A stretch of DNA of 39,506 bases from Paludibacteraceae bacterium (GTDB lineage: Bacteria > Bacteroidota > Bacteroidia > Bacteroidales > Paludibacteraceae): positions 1 to 39,506 of the forward strand of contig JAIKXR010000112.1 in NCBI GenBank assembly GCA_024683975.1, read 5' to 3'. The translations under genes were made by a program, and so were the position numbers. Every line of letters begins with the position of its first letter. The first letter of the stretch is position 1. Below the pieces are notes generated by a model that saw only the letters and a program-made list of their open reading frames with translations, was not told where the DNA came from and did no database searches. Shown piece by piece: positions 11,246-28,938 of this stretch.

Positions 11246-11465
11246 CACGCTCATTGCTATGCCCTTGCTGTATCATTGCCATGTCTTGGTCATATCCTTG
11301 CAGTATCATCGCCTTTGTCCTGTCGGCGGAACCCTGTTTTCATAGCAGGCTTGTCGGAGGCAGGACGATAACGACACGACAACGACACGATAACGACTTT
11401 GACAATTTGCAACCGCATCGCTTGGAGCATACCCCTGAAAAGATAAAAGTGACAAAAAAATCAAT

Positions 11466-14400
11466 ATGAAAAACTTCAAACTTTGGAATACTGTCGGCGG
11501 ATGGCTCGTCTTTGCCATTGCTGCCGCCACGTATCTGCTCACTATGGAACCCACGGCATCTTTCTGGGATTGCGGTGAGTTCATCTCCAGTGCCTACAAA
11601 CTTGATGTCGGACACCCCCCAGGAGCGCCTTTCTTCATGCTTATGGGACATTTCTTCTCCCTCTTTGCATCCGATACAACCCACGTTGCCATGTGTGTCA
11701 ATGCCCTTTCGGCACTCGCGTCAGCGTTCACTATACTTTTCCTCTTCTGGACTGTCACAGCTTTGGCGCGCAAACTGATTACTCCCGACACCCTTGCCAA
11801 AACTGTCATCGTCCTCGCTGCAGGGGCGGTCGGCGCACTCGCATACACTTTCTCCGACACCTTCTGGTTCTCTGCCGTCGAAGGAGAGGTCTATGCATCC
11901 TCGTCGCTTTTCACTGCCTTGGTCTTTTGGCTCATTCTTAAGTGGGACGAACACGCAGATGAGGAAGGTTCGGATAAGTGGCTCATTCTCATTATGTATC
12001 TCATGGGACTCAGCATAGGTGTCCATCTGCTTAATCTCCTTACCATTCCTGCTATTGTCCTCGTCTATTATTTCCGCCGCTACACTTTCTCGTGGAAAGG
12101 TGTCATCTTCGCTTTCCTCGTGTCTGTCGCTGTTTTGGCTACCATCCTTTATGGTATCATTCCGGGTGTTCCTACTGTTGCCGGCTGGTGCGAACTATTC
12201 TTCGTCAATACGCTCGGTTGCCCGTTCAATACAGGTCTCTTCGTTTATCTCATTCTGACGGCTGTCCTTATTGTAGCGGGAATTATTTTCACCTATCGCA
12301 AGTTGGAGCGGCAAGACGAAAAAGACACGTCACAACTTTGGCGTTGGTGCAACACAGCCCTTATCATGCTGGCTGTTATACTCGTGGGATACTCCTCCTA
12401 TGCCGCTATTGTCATCCGCTCCTCGGCTGACACGCCTATGGATCAGAACTCACCGGATAACGTCTTCTCTCTCAAGTACTACCTCAATCGTGAGCAGTAC
12501 GGCGATCGCCCGCTGCTCTACGGGCAGACATACAACGCCCCCGTCGAGCTGCGCATAGAAGGCAATATGTGTATCCCCGTTGAGAAACGAGGACACGCCC
12601 AGTATGCACCTGCACCAAAAGAAGAAGGCGGGAAAGACCACTACGCCATCACGGGCTACAAAAACTCGTATAAGTATATGGACAAGTTCTGTATGCTCTT
12701 CCCGCGTATGTACTCGCCCCAGTCCAACCATGTCAGTGCTTACAAAGAGTGGGCTCAGATCAAAGGACGCAAGGTGCGCTATGAGTACTGCGGACAGTGG
12801 AAAGCCGAGTATTGCCCCACTTTTGCCGAGAACTTGAGGTTCTTCTTCCGCTATCAGGTGAACTTTATGTATTGGCGCTACTTTATGTGGAACTTCTCCG
12901 GCAGACAGAACGACCTGCAGGGTTACGGTGAACTCCACAAAGGCAACTGGATAACGGGTATCTCACCCATTGATAACCTGATGCTTGGTGACCAAAACGC
13001 ACTGCCGACCGAACTCAAGCAGAACAAAGGGCACAACGTCTATTATATGCTCCCGCTTCTGCTCGGTATAATCGGTATCGTATGGCAGTTGTGCAAGAAG
13101 CAGAAAGGGGCTATGAACTTCACTATCACCTTCCTCCTCTTCTTCCTTACCGGTCTGGCCATAGTTGTCTATCTCAATCAGACTCCTTACCAGCCACGTG
13201 AACGTGACTATGCTTACGCAGGCTCCTTTTATGCCTTCTGTATCTGGATTGGATTGGGTGTCATCGGTCTGTACGAGGCTTTCGAAAAAATAACGCAAAA
13301 AGAAGGCGATAAGATTGCTATTGCCGTTGTCATCACTCTCGTCACACTCCTCGTTCCCGCGCAGATGGCTTCGCAGAACTGGGACGACCACGACCGCAGC
13401 GACCGCTATACCTGTCGGGATTTTGGTGCCAACTATCTCAAATCGTGTGAGTCACAAGGCATCATCTTCTCCAATGGCGATAACGATACCTTCCCGCTCT
13501 GGTACAACCAGGAAGTGGAAGGGGTGGGTACCGACCTGCGCGTTTGCAACCTCTCATATCTCCAGACCGACTGGTACATCGACCAGATGAAACGTCCGTA
13601 CTACGAAAGCAAAGGACTGCCCATCACGTGGGAATATAAGGACTATATGCCTGGTACCAACGAAGTCCTTTGGGTCGAAGACAATGTAGGCCAGCCAATC
13701 TCCGTTGAGCGGGCTTTCCGCTTTGTCCGTTCCGACGACCCGCAGACCAAACTGCGTGAACGCGACAACGACAACTATATTCCTGCCAGGCAACTCTATT
13801 TTGACGGACCTGACGGCGAACAGATAATGCTCAAGGAGGCAAAACGTTACACACGTTCCGAAATGATGGTTATGGAAATGCTTGAGCAGAACAACTTCGA
13901 GCGGCCCGTCTATTTCGCAGTCACAGTCGGTGATGATTACTACCTCGGTTTGCGCCCGTACTTCGAGTTGACCGGTCTTGCTTATCGTGTAACGCCTAAG
14001 AAGAGCGAAGACGGCAGGGCGCGGGTTAATACGGAGGTCATGTACGACAATATGATGCACCGGTTCGCATTCGGCAATATCGACAAGCCCGGTATCTATA
14101 TCGACGAGAACCTTATGCGTATGTGCCATACCCACCGTATGATGTTCCTCGAACTCACCGAGGCTCTATATAAGGAGAGACAGTACGACAAATCAATAGA
14201 AGTCATTGACTATGCGGAGAAGATGTTGCCCGCATATAACATTCCGTTTGACTATACCTCCGCTTGTATGGCGGCTATCCGCTATGCCGCGTCTGACAAG
14301 GTGCAGCAGCAAGGACTCGTAGAGCAGGCGGATTCGGTTATGGCTGCCGTGGCTGACAATTGTGTTGAGTACCTGCGCTGGTCGTCCGCACTTCCCAAGA

Positions 14401-14537
14401 AACAGCGCAAGAGCGTCCAGTCAACTGTCAATCAGAACCTCGGTATTCTCGGTTATGTTCTCCAGAACCTCAATCGTTACCACCGTAACGATCTCTTCAA
14501 CCTTTACTATACCGAGTACGACCGCTACGCGCAATAA
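11466..14537 (+). CDS. DUF2723 domain-containing large membrane protein (putative glycosyltransferase/O-mannosyltransferase-like)
   Basis: ORF 1023 aa; TMEPTASFWDCGEFISSAYKLDVGHPPGAPFFML and NQTPYQPRERDYAYAGSFYAFCIWIGLG are typical of Bacteroidetes DUF2723 proteins. Confidence 0.9.
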   Translation: MKNFKLWNTVGGWLVFAIAAATYLLTMEPTASFWDCGEFISSAYKLDVGHPPGAPFFMLMGHFFSLFASDTTHVAMCVNALSALASAFTILFLFWTVTALARKLITPDTLAKTVIVLAAGAVGALAYTFSDTFWFSAVEGEVYASSSLFTALVFWLILKWDEHADEEGSDKWLILIMYLMGLSIGVHLLNLLTIPAIVLVYYFRRYTFSWKGVIFAFLVSVAVLATILYGIIPGVPTVAGWCELFFVNTLGCPFNTGLFVYLILTAVLIVAGIIFTYRKLERQDEKDTSQLWRWCNTALIMLAVILVGYSSYAAIVIRSSADTPMDQNSPDNVFSLKYYLNREQYGDRPLLYGQTYNAPVELRIEGNMCIPVEKRGHAQYAPAPKEEGGKDHYAITGYKNSYKYMDKFCMLFPRMYSPQSNHVSAYKEWAQIKGRKVRYEYCGQWKAEYCPTFAENLRFFFRYQVNFMYWRYFMWNFSGRQNDLQGYGELHKGNWITGISPIDNLMLGDQNALPTELKQNKGHNVYYMLPLLLGIIGIVWQLCKKQKGAMNFTITFLLFFLTGLAIVVYLNQTPYQPRERDYAYAGSFYAFCIWIGLGVIGLYEAFEKITQKEGDKIAIAVVITLVTLLVPAQMASQNWDDHDRSDRYTCRDFGANYLKSCESQGIIFSNGDNDTFPLWYNQEVEGVGTDLRVCNLSYLQTDWYIDQMKRPYYESKGLPITWEYKDYMPGTNEVLWVEDNVGQPISVERAFRFVRSDDPQTKLRERDNDNYIPARQLYFDGPDGEQIMLKEAKRYTRSEMMVMEMLEQNNFERPVYFAVTVGDDYYLGLRPYFELTGLAYRVTPKKSEDGRARVNTEVMYDNMMHRFAFGNIDKPGIYIDENLMRMCHTHRMMFLELTEALYKERQYDKSIEVIDYAEKMLPAYNIPFDYTSACMAAIRYAASDKVQQQGLVEQADSVMAAVADNCVEYLRWSSALPKKQRKSVQSTVNQNLGILGYVLQNLNRYHRNDLFNLYYTEYDRYAQ

Positions 14538-14593: not shown

Positions 14594-14634
14594 AAGACAG
14601 GGACTGACTCGAAGCCGAGTCAGTCCCTGTCTTT
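14594..14634. terminator. Strong hairpin terminator between convergent genes
   Basis: GACAGGGACTGACTCG AAGC CGAGTCAGTCCCTGTC: 16-bp perfect stem (14596-14611/14616-14631), tetraloop AAGC, followed by TTT on the plus strand; sits between convergent DUF2723 gene and recX. Confidence 0.85.
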
Positions 14635-14685
14635 ATGCGTAGATTGTGTTATCGGGTTGTGTAGAATGGGTTATCGTATTGAAAT

Positions 14686-14713
14686 CATAAATCATAAACC
14701 ATAAATCATAAAT
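14686..14713. repeat. Array of 2 copies of 14-mer CATAAATCATAAA(C/T)
   Basis: CATAAATCATAAAC (14686-14699) and CATAAATCATAAAT (14700-14713); contains the recX stop codon. Confidence 0.95.
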
Positions 14714-15128
14714 TAGCAATCTCCTCATACGTATATCCTCTCTGAAGCATAAACCTTACTAACTTTGCTTTGTCCGCTTCGTTGGTCGCTTTCGGGCGTG
14801 AAGCAATGAGTTTTTCCATGTTCTTTTTATAGACCTCTGTGTCTGTTTCTTCTAATGCTCTTTCGATAAGACCGTCAGGCAGGCGTTTGGCGCGCAGGGC
14901 GTAGCGTATCTTCTGTCTTCCCCATTGGGCGAACGCCACTTTGTCATGAACGAAGGCGCGGCAGTAACGGCTGTCGTCCAGGTAACCGTTGTCATACAAG
15001 TACCTGATGACATCTTCATAATCAGCCTCATCTGCTCCCCATGCGTCTAATTTCTGTTCCACTTCCTGCCGGCACCGTTCAGCTACCGAGCAGTACCTTG
15101 CTGCCTTGTTTCGTATCTCTACTGTCAT
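14706..15128 (-). CDS. recX: Regulatory protein RecX
   Basis: ORF 140 aa; AARYCSVAERCRQEVEQKLDAWGAD, YLYDNGYLDDSRYCRAFVHDKVAFAQWGRQKIRYALRAK, ALEETD: RecX helical repeats. Confidence 0.9.
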   Translation of the reverse strand: MTVEIRNKAARYCSVAERCRQEVEQKLDAWGADEADYEDVIRYLYDNGYLDDSRYCRAFVHDKVAFAQWGRQKIRYALRAKRLPDGLIERALEETDTEVYKKNMEKLIASRPKATNEADKAKLVRFMLQRGYTYEEIANL

Positions 15129-15167
15129 AAATCATAAACCATAAATCATAAACCATAAATCATAAAT
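15126..15167. repeat. Array of 3 copies of 14-mer CATAAATCATAAA(C/T)
   Basis: 15126-15139, 15140-15153, 15154-15167; contains the recX start codon and the prmC stop codon. Confidence 0.95.
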
Positions 15168-16013
15168 TCTTAATTCCGCTCTCACCATTCTGTCTTTCCC
15201 GTAACTGTCTTTCCTGACCACAACATTTTCGTATCCTTCGCTTGTCAGCAGCTTCTTCACCTTGTCTCCCATACTCTCGTTGATCTCAAAATACACTGCG
15301 GGTGCAAGTCTCTTTTGCGCAATGGCGCGGTAGAAAATCAGCGGGTCGTCATCTGGCACAAACAACGCACTCTCCGGCTCATAACCTGTCACGTTCCTGT
15401 CCATCGTACCGCGTTCGGAAGAGAGTATGTAAGGCGGATTGCTCACCACAATATCAAACCTGTACTGATTGCCGTTGCTGTCTTCTTTCTCTGGTCTGCC
15501 ACCCGTTTCAGACAATATGTCCACTCTGTCAAAATCTATCTCCACTCCGTTGTTCCGCGCATTCTCTTTTGCTGTTTCCAATGCCTCCTCGCTCACGTCC
15601 CACGCGCTCACTTCCCATTGTGGCTGTCTCTTTTTCAGCGCAATAGCGATGCATCCGCTGCCAGTTCCGATGTCCAATACACGCAGATGTGAGCCTCTCT
15701 TTCCGTTATCGCTTGTCACCCAGTCCACCAGCTCGCTTGTCTCTGGACGCGGAATAAGGGTGGCTCCCGTAACACGCAGATTCAGACCCATCCATTCAGT
15801 CCTGCCAAAAACGTACTGTATAGGCTCACCTTCTAGCAGCCTTTCTAAATATCCGTCCAATCCTCTGATCTCCAACGGCTCCTGTCTTAACAGTATCTCT
15901 GCTCTTGTCTTGCCTGTCAGCTCCTCTGTCAGCCACATAGCCATAGCACGTGCCTCATCAGGCATGTACCTCTCTTTCAATACATCTGTTATATATCCTA
16001 TCGTTGGCGACAT
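15132..16013 (-). CDS. prmC: Peptide chain release factor N(5)-glutamine methyltransferase
   Basis: ORF 293 aa; QYVFGRTEWMGLNLRVTGATLIPRPETSELVDW, VLDIGTGSGCIAIAL, VVSNPPYI (NPPY motif). Confidence 0.95.
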   Translation of the reverse strand: MSPTIGYITDVLKERYMPDEARAMAMWLTEELTGKTRAEILLRQEPLEIRGLDGYLERLLEGEPIQYVFGRTEWMGLNLRVTGATLIPRPETSELVDWVTSDNGKRGSHLRVLDIGTGSGCIAIALKKRQPQWEVSAWDVSEEALETAKENARNNGVEIDFDRVDILSETGGRPEKEDSNGNQYRFDIVVSNPPYILSSERGTMDRNVTGYEPESALFVPDDDPLIFYRAIAQKRLAPAVYFEINESMGDKVKKLLTSEGYENVVVRKDSYGKDRMVRAELRIYDLWFMIYGL

Positions 16014-17987: not shown

Positions 17988-20900
17988 TCAGTTCTTGACA
18001 ATCCGGCGGGTGAAGGAGGCTGCGGGGGTGTTGACCACGACGAGGTGGATGCCTGCCGGCAGGGCGGACGTATCCACCCGCTGTCCGCTGCGGACCTGCT
18101 CAAGCGTCAGGAGAAGCTTGCCCGACATGCTGTAAACACGCAGACTGAAAACGCCTTCCACACCGGTCACCACAAACGAGTCACGGACACGTGCGGGAGT
18201 CACTTGCATACTGCCGCTGCTCACTTCCTCCGTGCGGGTCTCGACAGAGACAGTGTAGTGCCATGTCCTAACATCGCTCGAACCCTTGCCGTCAATGACC
18301 GCCACAGCCGCGAGGGTGGTCTCCGCGTTGATGACAACAGGCGTGCCGTCGTATAGGATGCGGGTGTCGGAATCCAAAGGACTGCTGCCGTCGAGCGTGA
18401 AATAGATCGCCGCGCCTTCGGTCTTGCAGGTCAGGGTGATTTCCGCGCCTTTCGCCACCTCGGTCTCCGTGGCGACAGAGGCTTCGGGAGCCTCAATCAC
18501 TAACGGGAGTTCCGTAACCACTTTCACCAGTGTGCTTGTGGTCAGTTCGGGGTCTTCCATTGTGAACGTGACAATCTCCTCGCCCGGCAGGTCTCCCTGT
18601 ATGGTTATGTGCGCCTCGCCGTTCGCGTCAAGAACCACTTCTGTCTGTGTGGCGGAAGCGATGATGCCCGACAGGCAGGTCACCGTCACCTTCTTGCCTG
18701 CGGCAGCGGCGGCGGGTGTCCCCTTCACGCGGACGGTTCCCGTACCCTGGTATTCCACATACACTTTCTTCGCTGCCTCAAGGCTCTTGAGTTCCCGTTC
18801 AATCGGCAGAACCGCCTCGTAGGGTTCGTCCATCTCGATGCCGGCATAGCTCTTCACCTGTCCGGAGACAATCAGGGTCACTTCCGTCGCCGTGAACGGC
18901 GTTGCGGGCACGAAGCGCAGCTGCGACGCATAGGCAGCTCCGTCGGGAGCCTCCTCCTCGTCGGTCAGCGAGATAACGCCTTCTACGGCTGTGCCGTTCT
19001 CCTTCACGGTAATCTGTTCCGTGGTCAGGAGGACGGGCTGCATATAGTTGTCGAACTTCACGGTCACGGCATCCTCGTAGGCGTGCGCCGTTTCCACCTT
19101 GGGCAGTCTGGCACGGACGATAGGTATATTGACATCCAGTTGCGGGGGCGGCACGGGCAGCCATTCCGAAGCGTTGTTCTCATAGCCCTCTTTCTGCACG
19201 CGTACCTGCCATATTCCCTGTGGCACATCCCACTGGTACATGCCGTCCGATCCGGTGGTCTGCGGGTTTACCTGGTCATAATTTTCGGCATCCCACATTG
19301 CATCTCTCTCGCCGGAACTGTTCCCGTTTTGGTTGAGCATAAAGTCCTTGTAGTAGATGGTCGCTGTGGCGCCTTCCACGCGGTTGGACGGCACAGCCTC
19401 GTAAACATACCCTTGCGGGTCGATAAGCGGTCTCGCTCTCCCAGAGCACCACCAGGTCGAAGTAGGCGGAAAACCTCTCAGTCTGTCACGTTCGTAGGCT
19501 GCTCTATTATCACTGTAATCATCATCGAAATCATCGTTATTGTCTTCATCGTCATTGTCATCATCATCATCATCGTCTTCATCGTCCTCATCATCATCGT
19601 CCTCATCCTCCTCGTCTTCATCCTCATCGTCACATGGGTCTTCATCTGCTATTTCCTCGTTAATAAATTTCAGTGCTCTTATGATGCTTTCTCCCTGAAG
19701 ATCCATTGTATTCTTATATTCTTTGAAATGACGGTCAAAATTCACGCTTACCATCTCTTCGATATTGGGATTGATATAATGCTTGTCAAGCCAGTCTTTC
19801 CCTAATTGAAGAGTGCTGCCCACTGCATATTGTGCGGCTTCTTCTGCCGCAGACAAGTGGTCAGCCGTTTTTACCAATCCGGCGGCTTTCATACCCGATC
19901 CAAGATATTTGCCTATGCCACTTGTGGCAGCGGAAAAAGTAACATCCCATGCCACCTTTCTGCACAAGTCAACCATTATACTTTTATAGGTTTCACCCCA
20001 TTGGCTGGCAAGTTCATCAAAATCGTTCAGCATTTTGTTTGTTCGATTTTTGAAATATTCTCTCCTGTCGGGCGGGTATGATATTATTTCACCATCTTCA
20101 ATACAATACGATTCCAGCTGCGCGTTTGCTTTTTCGATTTCGTCGTCAATGGCTCTGGCCATTCGTCTATGCCGGCTCCGCATCATATTATCGTAGAAGA
20201 AGATGGCGTCTATATAATCCTTCATTCCTACTACCTCCAAAATATCGGATCCTATGCTGGCTGCCGTTCCCCATGCGTTTACCATGTCCACGGCCGACGG
20301 TCTTTTCATCCTGGGTGCGACCGGCCTTTTGCCCGGCATAGCGCCCAGATCATCGGTCTCGGCATAGGTGATGCCCATCCGCATGGCGGAATGCCCGTTC
20401 ACATCCAAGAGCAGCATTTCCGCCTCATCTGTCCCGTTTATAAAAGTAAAGGCAAAGGTGTCCGTTTCATTGTGGGAGATGAACGGCCAGTCATCCATCA
20501 GGCGCTCCGCTGCCTCGTCATAGTCCATTTCTTTCATGGTGAAAGCAAATGGGGTCTTTCCGCTTACGGTATAACGCATGTTGATCGTTTTCTCGTCACT
20601 CGACAGCACTTCAATCTCCCCTTTCTTCGCGGCTTTGATTGCGGCTTTTTTCAATTTTGTCAGGACGTTTTTACTTGCCTCAGCCTCTGCAGCTTTCTCT
20701 TCTTCGCTGACAGGTGAGTATTCTGCTTCCACATAAGCGTAGGCTGAAACCGGCAGTTTGGATGAGTTGGGATATTTGGACGAGGCATAATAGCATTGTT
20801 TTTCGGCATCGTATTTCGCTTTCAACGTGCGGGTGGTTCCGTCTGACGCCAGCACTTTGATCTTTACGTCATTTGTTTTGGACTCATCCAAGTCGTCAAA

Positions 20901-26480: not shown

Positions 26481-26597
26481 GTTGATGATTTATGGTTTAT
26501 GATTGCAATATAGTTGAAAGTTGAAAGTTGAAAGTTGAAAGAAGTTGAAAGTTGAGAGTTGATAGTTGAAAGAAGTTGGAGAGTTGAGAGTTTATAG
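26481..26597. repeat. Leader motif plus AGTTGAA-type heptad repeat block (copy A)
   Basis: TGATTTATGGTTTATGATTGCAATATAGTTGA followed by (AGTTGAA)n variants ending GTTGATAGTTGAAAGAAGTTGGAGAGTTGAGAGTTTAT. Confidence 0.9.
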
Positions 26598-26735
26598 TTT
26601 TCACCTTAGTATTTTGCCTCAATTTTCTGGGTAGTTTTTGACTTGCTACCGGCTTACTGAATTATTTTCGCATTGCGGACAGATTCTCTACGATGCTCTC
26701 TGCGATGGGCTCTATGATGGTTTCCAGGGGAGTGC

Positions 26736-27130
26736 TTAAATAATAATCTGCCATTTTCCATCTTTACGTCCTCCTTCCCGAACCAAAAAACCAGCTTCTT
26801 GCAATGTGGCTATGTCGCGTTTAATGGTTTTTTCGGAAACCTTTAGCTTTTGGGTCATTTGTGATATGGTCAAGGTGTTATCCTCTCTTATTAAATACAA
26901 AACAATACGCTGTCTATCAGTAAGTTTGTCTAATTTCTCTTTTGGGTCATCTTTTGGGTCATTTCCATTACCTTGTTGTCGTTCCGGTCTGGGGAAGGTA
27001 AGGATGACTTCGTGGGAGGCTACCGAATAGAAAGGAGCGGGAACAGCGGCTTCCTTGCAGAGTTCCATAATACGCTCCACGCCTGACCCCCACTTGTCAA
27101 GGAAAGTGGTGAGGTAAAGGACTTGCTTAA
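26736..27130 (-). pseudogene. 3' remnant of an ATP-binding protein with AlbA_2/RecG-like C-terminal and winged-helix domains
   Basis: Open frame VKQVLYLTTFLDKWGSGVERIMELCKEAAVPAPFYSVASHEVILTFPRPE ... LTDRQRIVLYLIREDNTLTISQMTQKLKVSEKTIKRDIATLQEAGFLVREGGRKDGKWQIII resembles the C-terminal part of AlbA_2-type proteins; no N-terminal domain upstream (GNAT gene abuts). Confidence 0.65.
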
Positions 27131-27684
27131 CGGGAGAGCATTACAGAGAAGGGAGGGATATTCATCGCATACTTCTTCAAATCCAGATACATTGGTACTG
27201 TGAGTTCTTCTGTCGACTGGTTGAGTAAGGGGATAAAGCCATTTTTCTCATAAAACGGAACAGCCTCCTTATATGCATCCACAGTCAAAAAGCGGCAAGC
27301 AGAATACTGCCGGTTGGTGATAAGCGTAATACGGATACCTTCCAAAATCTGTGAACCGATACGGTTCCCTTTTTGAGACAGACTGACACCCAACCGGCCA
27401 ATCTTAACGGCAGGATAACTGCCCATGTGCTTGGAGTGCGGGATTTCTTTGCGCACCTTGCACCATAAGTTCTGCGGTATATTGCTCTTGGAAATCTTGT
27501 CATTAAGCAAACTATAGAACGCAATAGTGCGGTCGTCATCCTCGATAATATACGTGGATGCGAGAAACTGCTGTTGATAAAGAGCCGCATCTTTGAGTAA
27601 AAACTCATTCAAGTCACTATCTCCACAATCAAACGGTTTGATTGCGGAGATGTCCTCCAATCGTACAATCTTCATACCTGACAT
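27127..27684 (-). CDS. GNAT family N-acetyltransferase (candidate toxin of a toxin-antitoxin pair); ORF track starts at 27717
   Basis: MSGMKIVRLEDISAIKPFDCGDSDLNEFLLKDAALYQQQFLASTYII ... AVKIGRLGVSLSQKGNRIGSQIL ... RFLTVDAYKEAVPFYEKNGFIPL; ATG at 27684 overlaps the upstream stop as TGATG. Confidence 0.82.
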   Translation of the reverse strand: MSGMKIVRLEDISAIKPFDCGDSDLNEFLLKDAALYQQQFLASTYIIEDDDRTIAFYSLLNDKISKSNIPQNLWCKVRKEIPHSKHMGSYPAVKIGRLGVSLSQKGNRIGSQILEGIRITLITNRQYSACRFLTVDAYKEAVPFYEKNGFIPLLNQSTEELTVPMYLDLKKYAMNIPPFSVMLSR

Positions 27685-27842
27685 CACATAGGGAACGTAG
27701 CGATACTTTTCATCCACTCATACGAGCGCATGCAACGCTCCATCTCCTCGCGCGAAGCAGGCTGAACATTGTCCATATTGTGCTGGAAACGCTCAGCATC
27801 CAAATCAAACAAAATCGGAGTTTCAGCAATTGGTCGTGCCAT
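27684..27842 (-). CDS. Small protein, candidate antitoxin partner of the GNAT (ORF track starts at 27905)
   Basis: MARPIAETPILFDLDAERFQHNMDNVQPASREEMERCMRSYEWMKSIATFPM (52 aa), translationally coupled to the GNAT gene. Confidence 0.6.
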   Translation of the reverse strand: MARPIAETPILFDLDAERFQHNMDNVQPASREEMERCMRSYEWMKSIATFPM

Positions 27843-27917
27843 AGTTTCGTTGTTTTTGCAAGTGTTATTTAATATCAATTCAAGTTTATGATTTTCAGGT
27901 TTCAATTTTTAACGCCG

Positions 27918-27947
27918 CAAAGGTACGAAAAAAAGAGGGATTTACAA
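27918..27947 (-). promoter_or_regulatory. Putative promoter of the small protein/GNAT operon
   Basis: Minus strand -7 TACCTTTG (27925-27918), -33 TTG (27947-27945), 19-nt spacing. Confidence 0.65.
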
Positions 27948-28072
27948 GAGTTTGGGCATTTTTTTAGTTGAAAGTTGTTTTATAGTTGATAGTTGACAAT
28001 TGATAGTTGATAGTTGATGATTTATGGTTTATGATTGCATGTTTGTTATTTCATGTTTCAAATTTATGGGTG

Positions 28073-28705
28073 TTAGGTTGTGCTGCGGATGCTGTGGGCA
28101 ATAAATGCTTTCAGTTCCGCTTCAGACGGCAGGTGGATATGATACTTTTGCACGAATAAGTTCGGGTCTAATCCTCCGGTCGCATATTTAACAACCGTCT
28201 CTCCATAGTCTGTACAGAGCAACAAGCCTATCGGCGAATTGTCATCCTCGGTCATTACTTCGTGCTTGTAGTAATTGATATACATATTCATTTGCGAAGT
28301 AGCGTTTTCAGATTCGGCGGTCGCTAACCGCCGAATTGGTGTGTCTCCGGATTCGGCGGACGCTATCCGCCGAATTGTATCGGGCAATGCTAATGGGGAT
28401 GCGGGTTGTTGTGCGCCTACATAATCAAGCACCTCCTTGCCTAATTGCGGATACACCAGATAGAGACGGCGGAATTCGCGAAAACGACGTTCGGTCAATC
28501 CTTTGGTATGCAGGCGCTCTTCAAGGCGTTTGAGCAATTTGGTGCCATATTGCGCACGGTCTTCGCCGTTCTGCTCGAACTCAACGATATAACATCCCAT
28601 CAACCAGTTGCGGGATGTCAGCGACAAGTTGACAGCATGTGCCGCTTGCTGCTGCAAGACCGAATGAATCGTCTCAATGTTTTTCGCTAAAAGCTCAAAG
28701 GTCAT
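28073..28705 (-). CDS. DUF1016/YhcG-like protein that appears to lack the PD-(D/E)XK nuclease core (internally deleted or degenerate)
   Basis: N-term NLSLTSRNWLMGCYIVEFEQNGEDRAQYGTKLLKRLEERLHTKGLTERRFREFRRLYLVYP (DUF1016_N-like) joined through a short repeat to MNMYINYYKHEVMTEDDNSPIGLLLCTDYGETVVKYATGGLDPNLFVQKYHIHLPSEAELKAFI (DUF1016 C-terminal end). Confidence 0.75.
   Translation of the reverse strand: MTFELLAKNIETIHSVLQQQAAHAVNLSLTSRNWLMGCYIVEFEQNGEDRAQYGTKLLKRLEERLHTKGLTERRFREFRRLYLVYPQLGKEVLDYVGAQQPASPLALPDTIRRIASAESGDTPIRRLATAESENATSQMNMYINYYKHEVMTEDDNSPIGLLLCTDYGETVVKYATGGLDPNLFVQKYHIHLPSEAELKAFIAHSIRSTT
28312..28375. repeat. Two tandem 25-nt palindromes, 39-nt period, within the DUF1016-like CDS
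   Basis: ATTCGGCGGT-CGCTA-ACCGCCGAAT (28312-28336) and ATTCGGCGGA-CGCTA-TCCGCCGAAT (28351-28375). Confidence 0.97.
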
Positions 28706-28708
28706 TTT

Positions 28709-28829
28709 TGATTTATGGTTTTATGATTGCAATATAGTTGATAGTTGAAAGAAGTTGAAAGTTGAGAGTTGATAGTTGAAAGAAGTTGAAAGTTGATAGT
28801 TGAAAGAAGTTGGAGAGTTGAGAGTTTAT
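28709..28829. repeat. Leader motif plus AGTTGAA-type heptad repeat block (copy B)
   Basis: TGATTTATGGTTTTATGATTGCAATATAGTTGATAGTTGAAAGAAGTTGAAAGTTGAGAG... ending GTTGATAGTTGAAAGAAGTTGGAGAGTTGAGAGTTTAT, near-identical to 26484-26597. Confidence 0.9.
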
Positions 28830-28938
28830 GGTTATTGATTTCATGATTATTTCATGTTATTGATTGCATGTTTACTTTTTAGGGTTGATGAGTTAAGGCG
28901 TTTAGAAGTTTATGGGTTGTTAAGTTGGTTTATGAGGG

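What the first reader, a model, noticed from the sequence alone, without database searches (positions are those of the whole stretch)
14686..15167. recX is bracketed by arrays of a 14-bp repeat that supply its start codon, its stop codon and the prmC C-terminus
CATAAATCATAAA(C/T) occurs 2x at 14686-14713 and 3x at 15126-15167, same orientation. The recX ATG (15126-15128) is the edge of one array and its TGA (14706-14708) lies in the other. The prmC stop (15132-15134) and its last ~11 residues (IYDLWFMIYGL) are repeat-encoded. Direct repeats of >=28 bp flanking a RecA modulator would let recombination or slippage remove recX almost exactly and change the prmC tail. The repeat layout is directly seen; switching is a hypothesis.
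Basis: partly seen in the sequence, partly recalled or inferred. Interest (0 to 1): 0.62.

Follow-up and report, generated by a model that had tools for sequence, protein, structure and literature searches.

The report
Heptamer repeat arrays flanking recX
The recX gene of this uncultured Bacteroidales bacterium sits between two short arrays of a 7-letter DNA repeat; they belong to a genus-wide class of 7-bp arrays that fill gene borders and, in related species, repeatedly rewrite the same surface loops of housekeeping enzymes in frame, and nothing shows that they act as a recX switch.

Summary
The unit is 7 bp (CATAAAT/CATAAAC), in arrays at 14682-14713 and 15125-15167. They supply the recX start, both stop codons and the last 11 PrmC residues.

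They belong to a genome-wide class of period-7 arrays, mostly intergenic. Of 103 congeners with adjacent prmC-recX, only this species and its nearest relative (G177) have an array at that junction. G177 has arrays at the same two borders, but of another unit (AGTTGAT). G012, another close relative, lacks both. Sites can persist while units change.

Predicted copy-number changes mostly leave PrmC and the recX ATG intact. A 440-bp recombination would remove recX cleanly, but nothing shows that it happens, and two relatives lacking recX have no array at that joint. The switch idea is feasible but unsupported.

The larger result lies outside the given coordinates. In 27 of 96 congeneric PrmC proteins, period-7 arrays of differing units lie in frame in one or both of two loops, before motif I and before NPPY. 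RibD loops are hit the same way. Inside genes, periods 7 and 14 dominate (53 and 42, against 7 for six other periods).

Verdict: a known kind (heptanucleotide simple-sequence repeats) with a notable coding-loop variant.

The parts
14682..14713 (.). Heptamer array 1 (CATAAAT/CATAAAC, about 4.5 units); carries the last RecX codon and the recX stop
15125..15167 (.). Heptamer array 2 (about 6 units); carries the recX ATG, the prmC stop and the last 11 PrmC codons
14706..15128 (-). recX, 140 aa, three intact RecX HTH domains
15132..16013 (-). prmC, 293 aa, release-factor glutamine methyltransferase with a repeat-encoded C-terminal tail
14594..14633 (.). Perfect 18-bp hairpin with 4-nt loop between recX and the convergent gene 11466-14537; probable two-way terminator (inference), separate from the arrays

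Best explanation
The two arrays are ordinary members of a fast-turning heptanucleotide tandem-repeat class that is active throughout this Bacteroidales genus. Arrays arise or are rewritten by a process tied to a 7-nt period (probably replication slippage or template switching; inferred). They survive mainly where they do no harm: between genes, over the last codons of genes, and in surface loops of enzymes. In the direction of prmC-recX the unit carries ATG, and TGA wherever an A-starting unit follows. An array in the operon gap can therefore end prmC and start recX itself, and its copy number can drift almost neutrally. The recX bracket is two such arrays at the two borders of one short gene, not a dedicated switch. 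Shown: layout, class, positions, unit difference between sister species, in-frame coding-loop arrays. Inferred: the 7-nt mutational mechanism and near-neutrality.
For: Period 7/14/21 (and 11) dominate tandem arrays in 886 kb of the genome, none after shuffling, most outside genes. CATAAAT also at several other places of the genome and in 35 of 178 congeners, reversed control 0. G177 has arrays at the same two borders with another unit; 101 of 103 congeners have none at the junction. G012 lacks both. PrmC reading survives most copy numbers. The same class lies in frame in PrmC and RibD loops of relatives with differing units, placed between secondary-structure elements in a model.
Against: Two sister species sharing both borders, with one unit at both ends in each, is slightly more orderly than independent neutral arrays predict (about 0.04 by distant-pair frequencies). 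No strain-level data show that copy number really varies. The origin of the 7-nt step is not shown.
Confidence: 0.78

Rival explanations
1. Contingency cassette: the direct repeats are kept so that recombination or slippage removes recX in part of the population and changes RecA control.
For: 29 bp of exact direct repeat at 454 bp (or 28 bp at 440 bp); a 440-bp deletion removes recX and leaves PrmC unchanged. G177 also has a 26-bp direct repeat around recX, of different sequence.
Against: Junction arrays in 2 of 103 congeners only; no deletion seen; two recX-less relatives have no array at the joint; the same kind of array lies at many unrelated places.
Confidence: 0.06
2. Translational regulation: the array between prmC and recX binds a protein or shapes the mRNA and sets recX translation, as proposed for TAACTGA repeats upstream of start codons in Beggiatoaceae (PMC4679880).
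For: The array ends exactly at the recX ATG, in G177 it lies just upstream of the start; the same layout is described for TAACTGA repeats.
Against: The unit differs between sister species and arrays also follow genes and fill coding loops; most congeners have no array, and most have overlapping genes.
Confidence: 0.09
3. Concerted evolution: the two arrays around recX exchange sequence with each other, so a new unit replaces the old one at both borders together.
For: Same two sites, different unit, same unit at both ends in G000 and G177; near-identical composite arrays cluster locally in G177 (L351) and in the window at 26482-28872.
Against: Neighbouring arrays do not share units more than expected in G177 (10 of 27 against 9.1), and only p 0.05 from 3 pairs in G000.
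Confidence: 0.2

Closest known systems
Heptanucleotide long simple-sequence repeats of bacteria (Mrazek et al. 2007, as cited in PMC4679880 and PMC4692102)
   Same: 7-nt tandem units, mainly intergenic, over-represented, imperfect copies
   Different: Here many units coexist in one genus, an 11-nt class accompanies them, and arrays recur in frame in the same enzyme loops
TAACTGA heptamer repeats of Beggiatoaceae, Cyanobacteria and some Bacteroidetes (MacGregor 2015, PMC4679880)
   Same: Arrays overlapping an upstream stop codon and lying at the next start codon; stop codons from the repeat; some arrays in reading frames, mostly at protein ends
   Different: Unit is not TAACTGA (none in this genome as a direct repeat); units vary between species; arrays also lie inside conserved enzymes
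G-rich heptamers GGGAATC of Xanthomonas and GGGGA(C/T)T of Nostoc (PMC4692102)
   Same: Heptamers between the same genes in related species with length and sequence variation
   Different: A+T-rich units without G-runs, so no G-quadruplex; more complete unit replacement
Rickettsia palindromic elements (from general knowledge, not tested)
   Same: Repeat DNA tolerated in frame in housekeeping genes
   Different: Those are palindromic single insertions; these are non-palindromic 7-nt tandem arrays

Membership tests
Heptanucleotide simple-sequence repeats | Head-to-tail units of 7 nt beyond chance | tested here: met
Heptanucleotide simple-sequence repeats | Many loci per genome, mostly intergenic | tested here: met
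TAACTGA repeats | Unit TAACTGA in direct repeat | tested here: not met
   no TAACTGATAACTGA in the genome
Phase-variable contingency locus | Copy-number change alters expression or reading frame of the gene | tested here: inconclusive
   in silico most copy numbers keep PrmC near 293 aa and the recX ATG; expression not testable
Phase-variable contingency locus | Variation within a population or between strains | not testable with these tools
   One genome per species, no reads
Palindromic repeat elements (REP, MITE, Rickettsia palindromic elements) | Inverted-repeat structure of the element | tested here: not met
   no inverted repeat in the arrays; the only one is the hairpin at 14594-14633

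The most novel reading that the evidence does not exclude
A mutational process with a 7-nt step in this genus keeps creating and replacing heptamer arrays, both at gene borders such as prmC-recX and in frame in the same loops of conserved enzymes (PrmC, RibD), so that differing 7-mers rewrite the same protein loops again and again in related species.
Probability: 0.6. Interest if true: 0.68.

Novelty: new variant of a known kind. Interest (0 to 1): 0.48.

Why it matters
The excess of 7-nt repeats in bacteria has been noted since 2007 without a settled explanation. Here one genus offers about a hundred natural replicates in which the same protein loops and gene borders gain and lose heptamer arrays of different sequence. 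That makes the birth, turnover and cost of such arrays measurable. It also warns against reading a repeat-bracketed gene as a switch without a genus-wide background.

Tried and rejected
Neighbour sharing of units as proof of local copying: not significant in G177, borderline on 3 pairs in G000. Conserved array positions between G000 and G177 over sampled contigs: only 33 shared gene pairs, too few (p 0.06). Inheritance of PrmC-loop arrays: labels not significantly clustered on the tree. One heptamer superfamily NNRRTTG: 15 of 52 distinct units against 5.6 in shuffles, a tendency only, and part of the sample was fetched by the CATAAAT pattern. AGTTGAA search over the order: its reversed control matches the same sites, so it is uninformative. 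Loop length: loop A does not differ with arrays (median 19 aa both), loop B is longer with arrays (32 against 25). Literature searches found no report of heptamer arrays in PrmC or RibD loops; most subscription papers are not in the library.

Full report
Observation. The sequence is as described. The real period is 7 bp. Read in the direction of the genes, the units are ATTTATG and GTTTATG. Array 2 (15125-15167) lies over the end of prmC and the ATG of recX; array 1 (14682-14713) lies over the last RecX codon and its stop. Chance is excluded: with one mismatch there are 13 matches against 0.09 expected.

Genome background. I sampled 886 kb of the same genome. Among periods 4-21, tandem arrays are dominated by 7/14/21 and by 11, and none appear after local shuffling. 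Of 45 merged arrays of periods 7, 11, 14 and 21, 38 lie outside called genes although about 89% of the sequence is coding. At a slightly lower threshold there are 19 period-7 arrays in the 886 kb and 50 in 376 kb of the relative G177; the G177 stretches and some own contigs were chosen around known repeats, so these densities are biased upward. The exact 13-mer occurs 21 times on 7 contigs of the own genome. Three copies of CATAAAT in a row occur in 35 of 178 species of the genus, with no match to the reversed control. The organism is an uncultured Bacteroidales-type bacterium whose relatives have genomes near 2 Mb; its named identity was not established.

The prmC-recX site across the genus. 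Of 103 species with adjacent prmC and recX, 101 have no period-7 array between the genes; in most of them the two genes overlap or abut. The window species and G177 (RecX 81%, PrmC 65-68%) are the exceptions. In G177 both borders carry AGTTGAT, so PrmC ends ...LIVDS and RecX ends ...EIVDS. G012 (RecX 70%) has no array at either border; its junction GTTGAACAATTGAAGGTTGAATG is only faintly heptameric. Four other species have an array after recX only. Thus two sister species share the two sites but not the unit. That fits sites that persist or are hit again while units are replaced; length and sequence variation between the same genes is also described for close Xanthomonas species (PMC4692102).

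Consequences for the genes. RecX keeps its three HTH domains. PrmC orthologues mostly match up to about query residue 277-283, so the repeat-encoded tail is an addition. In silico, 5 to 10 units leave PrmC at 293 aa; 1, 2 or 4 units give 286-306 aa, and exactly three units ending in a G-unit would fuse PrmC to RecX (428 aa). The recX ATG stays the edge of the last unit. A recombination that deletes 440 bp removes recX and leaves PrmC unchanged; one of 454 bp gives a 308-aa PrmC. Against it: rarity in the genus, no variants to inspect, and two relatives (G066, 73% complete; G166, 90% complete) in which recX is missing between prmC and a recO-like gene with no array at the joint.

The larger finding. 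In 109 distinct PrmC reading frames of the genus, arrays of period 7 (37) and 14 (25) occur, against 8 for all other periods tested from 4 to 16. They sit in frame, mostly at two places: about 8-17 residues before motif I (LDIGTGSG) and about 12-25 residues before NPPY; two species have a third before the FFEINE strand. Among 96 proteins with clear motifs, 21 have an array in the first loop, 15 in the second, 27 in at least one and 9 in both. Units differ even between close relatives (for example L288 and L293, or L285, L119 and L118). On the tree (short search, many weak branches) no label is significantly clustered: for proteins without arrays 44 of 500 shuffles were as low, for the other groups more. 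Gain, loss and replacement therefore seem fast. RibD shows recurrent sites too, before CTLFVSLEPC and after WAQTADGF; single cases occur in other enzymes, including what looks like lysyl-tRNA synthetase (gene names other than PrmC and RecX are my reading of motifs, not database results). Inside genes, periods 7 and 14 total 95 cases against 7 for periods 4, 5, 8, 10, 11 and 13 together, some arrays being counted under both 7 and 14. The 11-nt class, common between genes, is nearly absent inside them. Named genomes show the same: CAMJDT010000041.1, ONQO01000107.1 and a Prevotella MAG, JAILFH010000015.1. An AlphaFold model of the L022 PrmC (mean pLDDT 93) places its two arrays between helices 37-42 and 50-60, and between helix 90-103 and strand 113-116, in the blocks of lowest or near-lowest confidence. 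The sample is biased, because loci were fetched around prmC; in the sampled stretches of three genomes only 6 of 74 period-7 arrays lie inside genes.

Mechanism. Shown: 7-nt arrays, their positions, the difference of units between relatives and their tolerance in frame. Inferred: a mutational process with a 7-nt step (polymerase slippage has been proposed in the literature, PMC4692102 and PMC4679880), filtered by selection. Sharing of one unit at both ends of recX may be chance (about 0.04 for both species from distant-pair frequencies) or may reflect exchange between the two arrays; the neighbour test does not support a general rule.

Known kind. This is a member of the heptanucleotide simple-sequence repeats. 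It is not the TAACTGA family. Placement over an upstream stop and before a downstream start is already described for TAACTGA repeats. I found no report of recurrent in-frame heptamer arrays in enzyme loops, but the library is incomplete.

Noticed in passing
window 26482-26600, 27960-28058, 28705-28872: Three composite blocks join AGTTGAA/AGTTGAT arrays in phase with TGATTTATGGTTTATGATTGCA and stand around two small genes; units ATAGTTG, ATGATTT, ATGGTTT and ATGATTG follow each other in one array.
   Followed up: partly
PrmC and RibD loops of relatives, e.g. L299, L292, L303, L110, L288, L266: In-frame heptamer arrays of differing units recur at the same loops of conserved enzymes.
   Followed up: yes
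own genome, e.g. L146 21-99, L178 1740-1814; window 11365-11397: A second class of tandem arrays with an 11-nt unit is about as common as the 7-nt class between genes but nearly absent inside genes.
   Followed up: partly
L322 (G066) and L328 (G166): recX is missing between prmC and a recO-like gene; L328 keeps a short remnant that resembles the start of recX of its relatives.
   Followed up: partly
L253 (G177) 2768-2968: Gene order changes right after the array behind recX (an ATPase-like gene instead of the homologue of window 11466-14537), so the array lies at a synteny break.
   Followed up: no
window 14594-14633: Perfect 18-bp hairpin between convergent genes, probably a two-way terminator.
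   Followed up: no
window 19518-19632: Long imperfect repeat of ATCATCGTC-type units (periods 6, 15 and 24).
   Followed up: no
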